From Gammaproteobacteria bacterium (GTDB lineage: Bacteria; Pseudomonadota; Gammaproteobacteria; Ga0077536), in contig JACQWY010000006.1 of the NCBI GenBank assembly GCA_016209015.1, positions 1-64,000 on the forward strand: a stretch of 64,000 nucleotides of DNA. The letters run 5' to 3'. Below, piece by piece: positions 20,590 to 23,948 of the stretch; the first letter of the stretch is position 1, and each line of letters starts with the position of its first letter. A program made the translations under genes and the position numbers. The notes under the pieces were generated by a model that did no database searches, was not told the DNA's origin, and saw only the letters and a list, made by a program, of their open reading frames with translations.

Positions 20590-22287
20590 CTAGACGTGCC
20601 CGCGCTCGTTTGCCCGGCACAGGGCCGCGAGCACCCCGAGATCCCCCTCCTCGCCCACGGGATCGAAATAAGGCGTAGCCGCGCGGCGGCGCGCCAGCAC
20701 GGTCGTCAGCGATGCCGTCTCCGCCGCCGCTTCGCAGGACGGCACATGTTCCTCCGCCGGCCACTGCGCCGCGAGGCGCTCCGCACACGCGGCAAGCGTG
20801 CCGTCCGCGAGCACGCGAGCGGCCGCCCGGAGACAGCCGTGCAGGCGTTCACCGACGGCATCACGTCGCAGGCCTGCGAGGCGCGGCAGCAGCGCGGCGC
20901 CCGATGCCCCGGCGCCCACGCCGAAGAACGCGAGGCGGCCGTCCGGCAGCTCGAGCCGATGGCGGAGAACGAGCTCGACGCAGGCCGCGAGCGCGGCGCG
21001 CGGTTCACGCTCCAGCGCCGCCGCGTAGCGCTGCCAGACGGGTGCCCCGGCACTCAGCGCGAGGCAGCGCGCCACGAGCCCGGCGTGCCAGTCGAAGGGC
21101 GGTGACGCCGCGCCGCGCAGCAGTCGCACCGCGCGTTCCAGCGCGGATTCCGCGAGGAGCGCGACGTCGAAGCCGAACCCGGCGCGGCGTGCCCCGGCCG
21201 CGAGCGTCAGCATCGGCACGAGGCCCGAACGCAGGGCCTCGACCTCGTATTCGACCCAGGGCCACGGCGCCGTGACGTCGCCGAACACCGGCCAGCGCCG
21301 CAGCCGCTCGCGCACTCCCGCGACATCGAGGCGGTGCGTCGCGAGACGCGAGACGAGCGCGCGATAGAGCAGCGTGGGCCGGGGCAGGAGCCGCACGGGA
21401 AGCGCCTCGCAGGCGTCGAGCGGTCCCCCGGGTGCGACGAGGCGCTCGTGCAGCGCGTCGATGTGCAGCCAGGCCTCGCGGTAGCCGTCGAGTACGTCGC
21501 GCTCGTAACCGGAGACCGCCATGTCGTGTGCGCCGAGGCGCGGCAGGCTGGCACGCCGCCCCGCGCCGGCGCCGGCCTCGATGCCGAGCGTGGCCGTGAG
21601 CCTCGCGCGCCCGCCCCGCCAATAGCCGCGCGGTCCGAGCAGGCCCGTGCCGAGCGCAGTATCGATGGGCCAGTCCGCCGGCCCGGCCGAGATCCGCAGG
21701 CGCGGCTGCAGCAGCGCCTCGCAATCCACGAGACAGGGCCGCTCGCCGGAGAAGAGCACGTTCGCGCGATGCGCGTCGCGGCTGCCGAGCCGCTGCAGCA
21801 GCGCGAGCAGGCGTCCCGTACGCCGCCAGGCCCGCGCCACCGCGGCCTCGTCCGCACAGGCGGCGGCCGCGAGCGCCCGGGCGTAGCTGTGGGTCGTGCA
21901 ATCGAGCACCGCCGGGCTCGCCAGCTCGAGCCCTTGCGGCAACGCGGCCGAAGGACCCGCGAGCACGTCGAGGATCGCGGCGAACGCGTGATCGGCGGCG
22001 GCACTGCGCGGCTTGAAGAGGAGGGCAACGCCGCCGGCCGTTTCGAGCTCCGCGACGCGTGGGCCCGCGGCGTGCGGGTCCGCGCGGCCGGGCCGCACGC
22101 GGCGCAGCGGCAGGATCGCCGGCTCCCCGGTGAAGGCGGCGAGCGCCGCGGCATCGTCACGGACATGCGCGGCGAGCGCCGCGCACTCCCGTTCGAGCCT
22201 CTCGCCGCTGATCTCCGCGGGCAGCAGGCTCTCCCGCGCGATCGCCGCGCGAGCCTGCCGACTGAACACCTCCGTCGTCGCGCTCAC
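20590..22287 (-). CDS. LanM-type lanthipeptide dehydratase (DUF4135) without cyclase domain
   Basis: 565 residues, against about 900-1000 for a full LanM. Both halves of the dehydratase site are visible. The kinase-like part has Lys92 (LLFKPRS), DAHRAN at 171-176 (DxHxxN) and DCE at 188-190 (DxE). The elimination part has VRLLPRPTLLYRALVSR, with the Arg-Pro-Thr at 303-305. These match residues needed to phosphorylate Ser/Thr and eliminate phosphate. After about residue 450 a stretch like the first LanC helices (FFGVGAGASGAALLPRLAG) appears, but the zinc-binding Cys and Cys-His motifs are absent. The likely start is GTG 22287, 31 bp after the precursor stop; its ribosome site is weak. It should dehydrate the precursor in the cytoplasm. 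Confidence 0.82.
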   Translation of the reverse strand: MSATTEVFSRQARAAIARESLLPAEISGERLERECAALAAHVRDDAAALAAFTGEPAILPLRRVRPGRADPHAAGPRVAELETAGGVALLFKPRSAAADHAFAAILDVLAGPSAALPQGLELASPAVLDCTTHSYARALAAAACADEAAVARAWRRTGRLLALLQRLGSRDAHRANVLFSGERPCLVDCEALLQPRLRISAGPADWPIDTALGTGLLGPRGYWRGGRARLTATLGIEAGAGAGRRASLPRLGAHDMAVSGYERDVLDGYREAWLHIDALHERLVAPGGPLDACEALPVRLLPRPTLLYRALVSRLATHRLDVAGVRERLRRWPVFGDVTAPWPWVEYEVEALRSGLVPMLTLAAGARRAGFGFDVALLAESALERAVRLLRGAASPPFDWHAGLVARCLALSAGAPVWQRYAAALEREPRAALAACVELVLRHRLELPDGRLAFFGVGAGASGAALLPRLAGLRRDAVGERLHGCLRAAARVLADGTLAACAERLAAQWPAEEHVPSCEAAAETASLTTVLARRRAATPYFDPVGEEGDLGVLAALCRANERGHV

Positions 22288-22318
22288 GGTGGGCGAGCCG
22301 CCGGCGGGCGCGCCGGGC

Positions 22319-22633
22319 TCAGGGACAGGAATCGAAATAGCTGATGATGGCTTCGCCGATGCCCTCGATGACGTCGCCCTTGCCGCCGCCCGCGATGACC
22401 TCGAGCTCGGCGTCGCTGAGCTCGTCGTTCTTGATGAGCCGCGCGGCGACTTCATCGAGGAATTCCTCGACGTCGTCGGTATCGAACGTGTAGCCGTGTC
22501 GCGCGCCGACGGCGACGAAGCGCTCGCAGTACTGCTCGTCGGTCAGGCCGTTCAGGCCGTTCAGGCCGTTCAGCTCGCGCTGCAGATCCTGGTCGTCTTT
22601 CGCGTGCATCAGGAATTCGTCGAACCCGTGCAT
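22319..22633 (-). CDS. Nif11-type leader RiPP precursor peptide
   Basis: 104 residues. The leader has the Nif11 pattern: FDEFLMHAKDDQDLQREL, then RHGYTFDTDDVEEFLDEVAARL, then ELSDAELEVIAGG ending in the double glycine 82-83 used by leader peptidases. The remaining 21 residues form the core. It starts GKGDVIEGIGEAII and ends SYFDSCP, with a single lysine (85), serines at 98 and 102 and cysteine 103. An unusual NGLNGLNGL repeat (22-30) interrupts the leader. AAGGAG precedes ATG 22633, which lies three bases after the stop of the deoxyhypusine-synthase-like gene. The dehydratase follows. Assignment as precursor rests on motif and context. Confidence 0.85.
   Translation of the reverse strand: MHGFDEFLMHAKDDQDLQRELNGLNGLNGLTDEQYCERFVAVGARHGYTFDTDDVEEFLDEVAARLIKNDELSDAELEVIAGGGKGDVIEGIGEAIISYFDSCP
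22546..22572. repeat. Tandem 9-bp repeat inside the precursor leader
   Basis: Three head-to-tail units close to GTTCAGGCC encode (on the minus strand) three Asn-Gly-Leu triplets. They are in frame, so slippage would change leader length by three residues without breaking the gene. Confidence 0.85.
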
Positions 22634-22636
22634 GGC

Positions 22637-23809
22637 TCACTCCTTGGTGGTCTTCTTCTCGGGACCGGAATCCGGCGTCGCGCCGGTTTCCGGCATGGTC
22701 TCGCCGCGCGCGTCGTGCGCGACCGGCGTGTATTCCTGGAATGCCGCTTCGCCCTCGACCTTCACCGATTGCGCGCCGGCGCGGATCTTGCCCCAGGTGA
22801 CCGCTTCGTCGATCGGGGCGCCCGCATTGCTGCCGTCGGCTTCGGTCGCGTTGTTGACGTACACGGCGTAGCGCGCGCCGCCGCCGAAAATCGCGGCGTT
22901 GCAGATCATGTGCTTCGGCACGGAACCGCCGATCGCGACGAGGGCGACAGCGCCGTGCTCCGCGGTCGCGAGGATCATGTCGTCGATCAGGAGATCCTGG
23001 TACTCCGTGGCATCGATGGCGAAGCGGCGCCGGGACTCGCGCCGGAAGTAGTACATGACGTCACCGATCGCCCCGTCGAGCAGCACCGGACAGTGCAGCG
23101 GGATGTCCTGCTTGTAGGCCCAGTAGACGAAGCTTTCCTCGCGGCGCGGGATGGCCATCAGTTCCATCTGGCGGCCGAGCTCGCGCGTGTATTCCGTGAT
23201 GCCGACGCGGGCGTCGCCCGGCGGACGCGTGCGCGCGAGGCGCCGGTTCAGGGTCCAGAGCAGCAAGTGCAGGCGCGTGTAGCGCCCCGTCGGGATGAAG
23301 ATGTTCCCGGTGCGGTTGATCATCCGCTCGTACAGGTCGCGGCCGTCGGCTCTGAAGTCGCCGAGCACGAACGGCCGGAACACCTTCATGACGTCCTCTT
23401 CCACCGCGCCGGCGGTGGTCGCGAGCGCGCGCACGTGACGGTGCCGCGTGAGGTAGGTGATCGTCTCGCGCAGCCCGCAGGTGCCGAGGTTCGACGTGAA
23501 GCCGAGATAGATCGGAACCGCGTGGTCGCGCACCTCGCGGAGGATCGCGATGGCCCGCGCGAGATTCGTCGCCTGGAAACCGGTGGTCGCGAGCGAGTCG
23601 ACGAAGCGGGACAGCGAGAATGGCCCCTCGTGATCGTAGCCGCGGATGGCCGTACCGTGCTCGAGGCGATCCGCGTTCTTCAGTCGACGCTCGTAGGTCT
23701 CCTTGAGTTGGGCGAGCGCGCCGTCGATGACGGAATCGCGATCGGGAACAGCCGGATCCTCCGGCGTCGCGCTCGAATCGGCAACGTCAATGTGCGTGGT
23801 CTGATCCAT
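22637..23809 (-). CDS. Deoxyhypusine-synthase-family enzyme in a RiPP operon
   Basis: 390 residues, clearly related to eukaryotic and archaeal deoxyhypusine synthase. The NAD-binding blocks are GFTSNLGTCGLRETITYL, LATTAGAVEEDVMKVF and GNIFIPTGRY. The active-site region GGSVPKHMICNAA holds His300 (human His288), NNATEADGSNAG is the acidic substrate loop, and DEAVTWGKIR places Lys341 at human Lys329, the residue that carries the aminobutyl group. Bacteria lack eIF5A, so the acceptor must differ. Homospermidine-synthase-like or agmatine-using activity is possible, but the three-base gap to the precursor gene points to the peptide. The tail after residue 365 is disordered and charged. ATG 23809 gives the family-like start. 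Confidence 0.88.
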   Translation of the reverse strand: MDQTTHIDVADSSATPEDPAVPDRDSVIDGALAQLKETYERRLKNADRLEHGTAIRGYDHEGPFSLSRFVDSLATTGFQATNLARAIAILREVRDHAVPIYLGFTSNLGTCGLRETITYLTRHRHVRALATTAGAVEEDVMKVFRPFVLGDFRADGRDLYERMINRTGNIFIPTGRYTRLHLLLWTLNRRLARTRPPGDARVGITEYTRELGRQMELMAIPRREESFVYWAYKQDIPLHCPVLLDGAIGDVMYYFRRESRRRFAIDATEYQDLLIDDMILATAEHGAVALVAIGGSVPKHMICNAAIFGGGARYAVYVNNATEADGSNAGAPIDEAVTWGKIRAGAQSVKVEGEAAFQEYTPVAHDARGETMPETGATPDSGPEKKTTKE

Positions 23810-23844
23810 GGGCTCTCGATCGCGGATGGCACCCGGCGGCGACG

Positions 23845-23874
23845 AGTATGCCGAGGCCCGCGCGCGGAGAGCAA
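23845..23874 (-). promoter_or_regulatory. Candidate promoter of the RiPP operon
   Basis: On the minus strand TTGCTC (23869-23874) and CATACT (23845-23850) are 18 bases apart, with the expected transcript start about 30 bases before ATG 23809. The match is moderate. The 139-bp gap holds no other obvious signal. Confidence 0.35.
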
Positions 23875-23948
23875 GCCCCTGCCGCACCCCGGAGCGCGCG
23901 GCGCCGGAACCGGATTGGGCGGCCTCCGCGCGTGATGCGCCGCACCGC

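What the first reader, a model, noticed from the sequence alone, without database searches (positions are those of the whole stretch)
22637..23809. Bacterial deoxyhypusine-synthase homologue with all catalytic residues but no eIF5A
His300, the acidic loop, Trp339 and Lys341 match human His288, the spermidine site, Trp327 and Lys329. In bacteria there is no eIF5A to modify. The adjacent precursor has exactly one lysine in its core (85), which is the residue type this chemistry targets. An aminobutyl transfer to a peptide would be a new use of the family. Homospermidine synthesis is the main competing explanation.
Basis: partly seen in the sequence, partly recalled or inferred. Interest (0 to 1): 0.85.

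Follow-up and report, generated by a model that had tools for sequence, protein, structure and literature searches.

The report
Hypusine-type enzyme in bacterial peptide cluster
A bacterium that lacks the only known target of deoxyhypusine synthase carries an archaeal-type copy of that enzyme in an operon with a small peptide precursor, and a second, distant bacterium does much the same, so the enzyme probably decorates the peptide's single core lysine instead of a translation factor; the chemistry itself is still untested.

Summary
Confirmed: 22637-23809 (minus strand) encodes a deoxyhypusine-synthase (DHS) homologue keeping E137, D243, H288, E323, W327 and K329 (human numbers); one correction, human D316 is Asn328. 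It is translationally coupled to a Nif11-leader RiPP precursor (core GKGDVIEGIGEAIISYFDSCP, single Lys85), followed by a stand-alone LanM dehydratase domain. eIF5A is absent from the genome, spermidine synthase present. Among 85,000 species one relative is closer than any archaeal DHS: Halorhodospira abdelmalekii, where it lies in an NHLP/YcaO RiPP cluster beside a precursor; both NHLP cores there also carry one lysine. The two enzymes form a 100/100 clade beside archaeal DHS; grouping with bacterial homospermidine-type enzymes is rejected (AU p 0.014). Both keep the NAD/spermidine site but lost 5 of 6 conserved eIF5A-contact residues. Best explanation: a RiPP tailoring enzyme transferring spermidine's aminobutyl group to the core lysine (0.55). 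There is no enzymatic evidence and only two clusters are known; free homospermidine synthesis (0.15) is a main rival. No paper in the searched library links DHS to RiPPs.

The parts
22637..23809 (-). Deoxyhypusine-synthase homologue (390 aa), proposed peptide-lysine aminobutyltransferase; catalytic K341, H300, W339, E138, D250, E335
22319..22633 (-). Nif11-leader RiPP precursor peptide (104 aa), starts 3 bases after the DHS stop codon
22322..22384 (-). Predicted core peptide GKGDVIEGIGEAIISYFDSCP after the double-glycine site (residues 84-104); cleavage position inferred from the motif
22379..22381 (-). AAG codon of Lys85, the only lysine of the core; proposed acceptor
22640..22645 (-). AAGGAG, Shine-Dalgarno-like, inside the last two DHS codons, 6 bases before the precursor ATG: translational coupling of the two genes
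   Evidence: direct reading
20590..22287 (-). Stand-alone LanM-type (DUF4135) dehydratase domain, 565 aa, kinase motifs KPRS / DAHRAN / VDCE and lyase motif VRLLPRPT kept, no LanC cyclase domain

Best explanation
A three-gene RiPP operon (dhs - Nif11 precursor - LanM dehydratase) in which a DHS of archaeal type has been re-aimed from eIF5A to a peptide. Proposed mechanism: NAD+ oxidises spermidine in the conserved site, 1,3-diaminopropane leaves, the 4-aminobutyl imine is held on Lys341, and it is passed to the epsilon-amine of Lys85 of the precursor and reduced, giving a deoxyhypusine residue (+71.07 Da). The LanM domain phosphorylates core Ser and eliminates it to dehydroalanine. The leader is cut at the double glycine, probably by a C39 transporter encoded elsewhere. 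Shown: gene, operon, residues, clade, second RiPP cluster, absence of eIF5A, presence of spermidine synthase. Inferred: that the peptide is the acceptor, that Lys85 is the site, that spermidine is the donor (agmatine is possible), and the order of steps.
For: Operon with overlapping translation signals. Full catalytic set kept, 9/9, including E137, whose alanine mutant in human DHS keeps spermidine oxidation but loses transfer to eIF5A (PMC10042821). 5 of 6 eIF5A-contact residues conserved in archaea are changed in both RiPP-linked enzymes, four to the same residue (S240A, M244V, F247Y, L295I; N173->T/M), while all 74 archaeal DHS keep at least 3; against matched columns P = 0.027 and 0.012, not independent. 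Second cluster in Halorhodospira with NHLP precursors, two YcaO, SagB dehydrogenase, NHLM HlyD and C39 transporter, DHS directly behind a precursor; those two NHLP precursors are the only ones in that genome and both cores have one lysine, in a shared C-terminal Cys-Lys ending although the cores otherwise differ. eIF5A absent and SpeE present in both genomes. Gene absent from 35 family-mates of the window genome and 11 of Halorhodospira, as expected of an accessory cassette. None of the archaeal or homospermidine-type loci fetched shows these RiPP genes nearby (low sensitivity).
Against: No biochemical data. Only two clusters, with different leaders and different lysine contexts (GKG near the core start; TCK or PCK at the C terminus). 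One lysine in a core of about 20 residues is common by chance. Human DHS binds a folded eIF5A domain, and loss of eIF5A contacts would also follow if the enzyme made free homospermidine. D316 is Asn. NCBIfam DHS equivalog cut-off not reached (295 vs 380 bits).
Confidence: 0.55

Rival explanations
1. Homospermidine (or other free polyamine) synthase: the enzyme transfers the aminobutyl group to putrescine, and the polyamine is either unrelated to the peptide or a building block for it (for example added to dehydroalanine made by the LanM domain).
For: DHS enzymes make homospermidine as a side reaction and plant homospermidine synthases arose several times from DHS (PMC7780104; PMC5873419). Loss of eIF5A contacts fits.
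Against: Not in the bacterial homospermidine/bis(guanidino)azanonane synthase clade (AU p 0.014), lacks its residues (N288, F243, M137) and scores 78 bits against a 500-bit cut-off. Tight operon with a precursor in one genome and placement between a precursor and other RiPP genes in another. The plant V/D motif could not be mapped with certainty here.
Confidence: 0.15
2. It acts on the precursor but with another acceptor or chemistry: an N-terminal or other amine, cross-linking of the aminobutyl or lysine amine to dehydroalanine, or a guanidinobutyl group from agmatine.
For: A dehydratase without a cyclase domain in the same operon leaves dehydroalanine available; agmatine is a main polyamine in Haloferax, which hypusinates aIF5A (PMC5178350 abstract). 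The Halorhodospira cluster also has SET-domain genes, a lysine-methyltransferase fold, that could use the same lysine.
Against: The simplest reading of a conserved DHS site is aminobutyl transfer to lysine; no direct evidence for the alternatives.
Confidence: 0.15
3. It modifies another protein, for example EF-P, the bacterial relative of eIF5A, and sits next to the precursor by coincidence.
For: EF-P is the structural counterpart of eIF5A and carries lysine or arginine modifications in many bacteria (own knowledge).
Against: Sporadic presence does not fit a translation-factor role; two different RiPP neighbourhoods make coincidence unlikely. EF-P itself was not examined.
Confidence: 0.06
4. 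A decaying or inactive acquired gene.
For: Long terminal branch in the tree (1.09 changes per column).
Against: Complete frame, all catalytic residues kept, sister enzyme in another family with the same derived changes.
Confidence: 0.05

Closest known systems
Archaeal and eukaryotic deoxyhypusine synthase (PF01916; P. horikoshii 7cmc, human 1dhs)
   Same: Fold, NAD and spermidine site, catalytic lysine and histidine, 37-46% identity
   Different: No eIF5A in the genome; eIF5A-contact residues changed; D316->N; gene sits in a RiPP operon
Bacterial DHS-like homospermidine / 1,9-bis(guanidino)-5-aza-nonane synthases (NF002699, NF001980)
   Same: Same superfamily, catalytic lysine kept
   Different: 23-29% identity, separate clade, H288->N, D243->F, E137->M, N173->E
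Halorhodospira abdelmalekii NHLP/YcaO cluster (L041)
   Same: Sister DHS (46-49%), beside a double-glycine precursor whose core has one lysine
   Different: TOMM-type chemistry (two YcaO, SagB), NHLP instead of Nif11 leader, own transporter; not described in any paper found
Class II lanthipeptide synthetases (LanM, e.g. LicM2 6st5) and DUF4135 dehydratases such as CcaM of the dehydrazoles (PMC10676384)
   Same: Dehydratase active-site motifs
   Different: No cyclase domain of either LanC or class III type in the window protein
RiPP lysine/ornithine N-acylation in Nif11/NHLP peptides (selidamides; own knowledge, not looked up)
   Same: A core amine side chain of a Nif11/NHLP-type peptide is decorated by a dedicated enzyme
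   Different: GNAT acyltransferase and fatty acyl group there; NAD-dependent aminobutyl transfer proposed here

Membership tests
Deoxyhypusine synthase (as an enzyme family) | DHS fold and PF01916 profile | tested here: met
   E 5e-74; model to 1dhs rmsd 1.7, E 8e-30
Deoxyhypusine synthase (as an enzyme family) | Catalytic Lys329, His288, Trp327, Glu323, Asp243, Glu137, Asp238, Asn106, Ser105 | tested here: met
   9/9 kept
Deoxyhypusine synthase (as an enzyme family) | Asp316 of the active-site loop | tested here: not met
   Asn328; but variable also among archaeal DHS (D 41, L 23, N 6 of 74)
Deoxyhypusine synthase (as an enzyme family) | NCBIfam equivalog cut-off | tested here: not met
   NF003052 295 of 380 bits, TIGR00321 217 of 304
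Deoxyhypusine synthase (as an enzyme family) | eIF5A/aIF5A substrate in the same genome | tested here: not met
   no TIGR00037 match in G000 or G779; four of the control genomes ring over the cut-off
Deoxyhypusine synthase (as an enzyme family) | eIF5A-contact residues | tested here: not met
   1 of 6 kept in both RiPP-linked proteins
Deoxyhypusine synthase (as an enzyme family) | NAD-dependent aminobutyl transfer from spermidine to protein lysine | not testable with these tools
   needs assay; SpeE present
Bacterial DHS-like homospermidine-type synthases | Placement in their clade | tested here: not met
   AU p 0.014 (pair) and 0.028 (window alone)
Bacterial DHS-like homospermidine-type synthases | Signature N288 / F243 / M137 / E173 | tested here: not met
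   H, D, E, T in the window protein
Plant-type homospermidine synthase | V/D motif in place of I/N | tested here: inconclusive
   position could not be mapped with certainty from PMC5873419
Nif11-leader RiPP cluster | Nif11 leader with double-glycine site and short variable core | tested here: met
   TIGR03798 33.3 bits, cut-off 32.3; PF07862 just below its cut-off (21.4 of 23.8)
Nif11-leader RiPP cluster | Modifying enzyme beside the precursor | tested here: met
   DUF4135 dehydratase
Nif11-leader RiPP cluster | C39-peptidase exporter | tested here: inconclusive
   none in the operon; one with an NHLM-HlyD-like partner on another contig, C65
Class II lanthipeptide (LanM) system | Dehydratase plus LanC-type cyclase | tested here: not met
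   dehydratase domain only

The most novel reading that the evidence does not exclude
A second natural kind of substrate for deoxyhypusine chemistry: a clade of archaeal-type DHS enzymes that installs deoxyhypusine on secreted ribosomal peptides of bacteria, a RiPP modification not described before.
Probability: 0.5. Interest if true: 0.92.

Novelty: new variant of a known kind. Interest (0 to 1): 0.82.

Why it matters
Hypusine is described in the literature as occurring at a single site of one cellular protein (PMC9117371 abstract). A DHS re-aimed at a RiPP would break that rule, add a new cationic side-chain modification to peptide natural products, and give an enzyme that could attach aminobutyl groups to chosen lysines of peptides. 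It is directly testable with two genes in E. coli, which already makes spermidine.

Tried and rejected
Viral contigs (five scans) and phages: no relative. Plasmids: only haloarchaeal DHS paralogues at 37-40% plus one distant Sphingomonas hit; the five neighbourhoods read show no RiPP genes. AlphaFold of the LanM-like protein without an alignment was useless (pLDDT 38). The plant I/N to V/D motif was considered as an acceptor test but its position could not be fixed. The statistic 'one lysine per core' was judged weak (often met by chance).

Full report
WHAT IS THERE. The gene at 22637-23809 reads on the minus strand from ATG 23809. It is a DHS homologue by profile (PF01916, E 5e-74), by sequence to solved structures (P. 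horikoshii DHS 40%, human 40%) and by model (pLDDT 82; human DHS at E 8e-30). The minus strand continues with a 104-residue Nif11-leader precursor starting three bases after the DHS stop; the Shine-Dalgarno-like AAGGAG of the precursor lies in the last two DHS codons. After a 31-base gap follows a 565-residue LanM-type dehydratase domain that aligns to LicM2 over the kinase and lyase motifs and stops before any cyclase domain. Excised LanM dehydratase domains are active on their own in several cases (PMC10676384), so a stand-alone domain is plausible. The neighbours on both sides are ordinary genes (class-II glutamine amidotransferase, glutaredoxin-peroxiredoxin, OxyR-like regulator, TetR regulator, fused methylmalonyl-CoA-mutase-type protein), so the unit looks like a three-gene cassette.

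ACTIVE SITE. In an alignment of 129 family members the window protein keeps S105, N106, E137, D238, D243, H288, E323, W327 and K329 (human numbers) and differs at D316 (Asn). Human DHS work shows D243A, H288A, W327A and K329A nearly abolish spermidine oxidation, while E137A leaves it but stops transfer to eIF5A (PMC10042821). Keeping E137 thus speaks for a protein or peptide acceptor, though not conclusively.

WHERE IT COMES FROM. The gene is single in its genome and absent from 35 genomes of the same family. In 398 genomes of the phylum and 369 of the class only distant relatives appear (23-31% identity in the phylum sample), apart from the gene itself. A scan of one genome per species (85,000 species; patterns TTGFQATN and TAG[AG]VEED) found 81 relatives; the best is Halorhodospira abdelmalekii (49%), the rest nearly all archaeal, led by Woesearchaeota. 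In trees the window and Halorhodospira proteins are sisters (SH-aLRT 100; 100/100 in a second tree) next to archaeal DHS and apart from the homospermidine-type clade; forcing them together with it is rejected (p-AU 0.014; window alone 0.028). Three of four sampled members of that clade score over the cut-off of 1,9-bis(guanidino)-5-aza-nonane synthase, the window protein far below. The source of the transfer within archaea is not resolved, and both branches are long.

A SECOND RiPP CLUSTER. In Halorhodospira the gene lies 77 bases behind an NHLP-leader precursor and overlaps a methyltransferase gene; around it are a second NHLP precursor, two YcaO proteins, a SagB-type dehydrogenase, SET-domain proteins, a TolC-like protein, the NHLM HlyD protein and a C39-peptidase protein on the same contig. 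These two NHLP precursors are the only ones in that genome. Their cores, LIGGVFGGSDDEDDGQPRPPPTCK and GTAPIVPDDNGDPQPTGGTHPLPPCK, differ widely but both end in Cys-Lys, the only lysine of each. The gene is missing from the 11 other genomes of that family. Two sister enzymes in two different kinds of RiPP cluster, each next to a precursor, is the central finding.

LOSS OF THE eIF5A FACE. Of the eIF5A-contact residues tested by mutation in human DHS, six are conserved in at least half of archaeal DHS; both RiPP-linked enzymes keep only Y176. The changes are N173->T/M, S240->A, M244->V, F247->Y, L295->I, four of them identical in both. No archaeal DHS of 74 keeps fewer than three. Against columns of like conservation the loss has P 0.027 and 0.012; the two are sisters, so these are not independent. 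N173A and L295A abolish hypusination in the human enzyme. eIF5A is absent from both genomes and spermidine synthase is present in both.

READING. Catalysis kept, partner face changed, substrate gene coupled: the simplest account is transfer of the aminobutyl group of spermidine to the core lysine of the precursor. That the peptide is the acceptor, that Lys85 is the site, and the order relative to Ser dehydration are inferred. The main rival, free homospermidine synthesis, explains the lost eIF5A face but not the repeated placement beside RiPP precursors. DHS enzymes are promiscuous (PMC7780104), so an assay must compare acceptors.

LITERATURE. Searches for DHS together with RiPP, Nif11 or lanthipeptide in 5.4 million open papers found no link (the single paper holding both words is, by title and abstract, a Bacillus biocontrol study). 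Subscription papers and preprints were not covered, so prior description cannot be excluded.

LIMITS. Two clusters only; the collection scan sees only relatives with one of two short motifs; lysine counts are weak evidence; the interface test rests on human residues; no biochemistry.

Noticed in passing
window 22013-23935, + strand: A 640-codon open frame runs antisense across the DHS gene and precursor; looks like the usual mirror frame of high-GC coding DNA, not a gene.
   Followed up: no
window 22319-22633, leader part: The precursor leader holds a perfect triple repeat LNG-LNG-LNG (CTGAACGGC three times, contiguous), possibly length-variable.
   Followed up: no
L039 (G000 C39:22171), L040 (G000 C29:101585), G000 C39:202348-202833 and C65:55848-56237: The same genome has further Nif11 and NHLP-like precursors elsewhere, the two Nif11 cores with two and three lysines, and no second DHS; the NHLP-like matches come as tandem pairs in one frame.
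   Followed up: partly
L154 (G000 C65:127104): C39-peptidase protein beside a distant NHLM-type HlyD homologue (25%); candidate exporter acting in trans for the window precursor.
   Followed up: partly
L041 10880-13419: Two SET-domain proteins in the Halorhodospira RiPP cluster, one apparently fused to a TolC-like outer-membrane protein; they could methylate the same core lysine.
   Followed up: no
L033-L037 (haloarchaeal plasmids): Plasmid-borne haloarchaeal DHS paralogues with D243->N and E136->T/A, two of them near a pyruvoyl-dependent arginine decarboxylase: possibly a polyamine-making branch.
   Followed up: partly
L119 (Verrucomicrobiaceae MAG): Contig with a human-like DHS split by intron-like gaps; probable eukaryotic contamination in a bacterial MAG.
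   Followed up: partly
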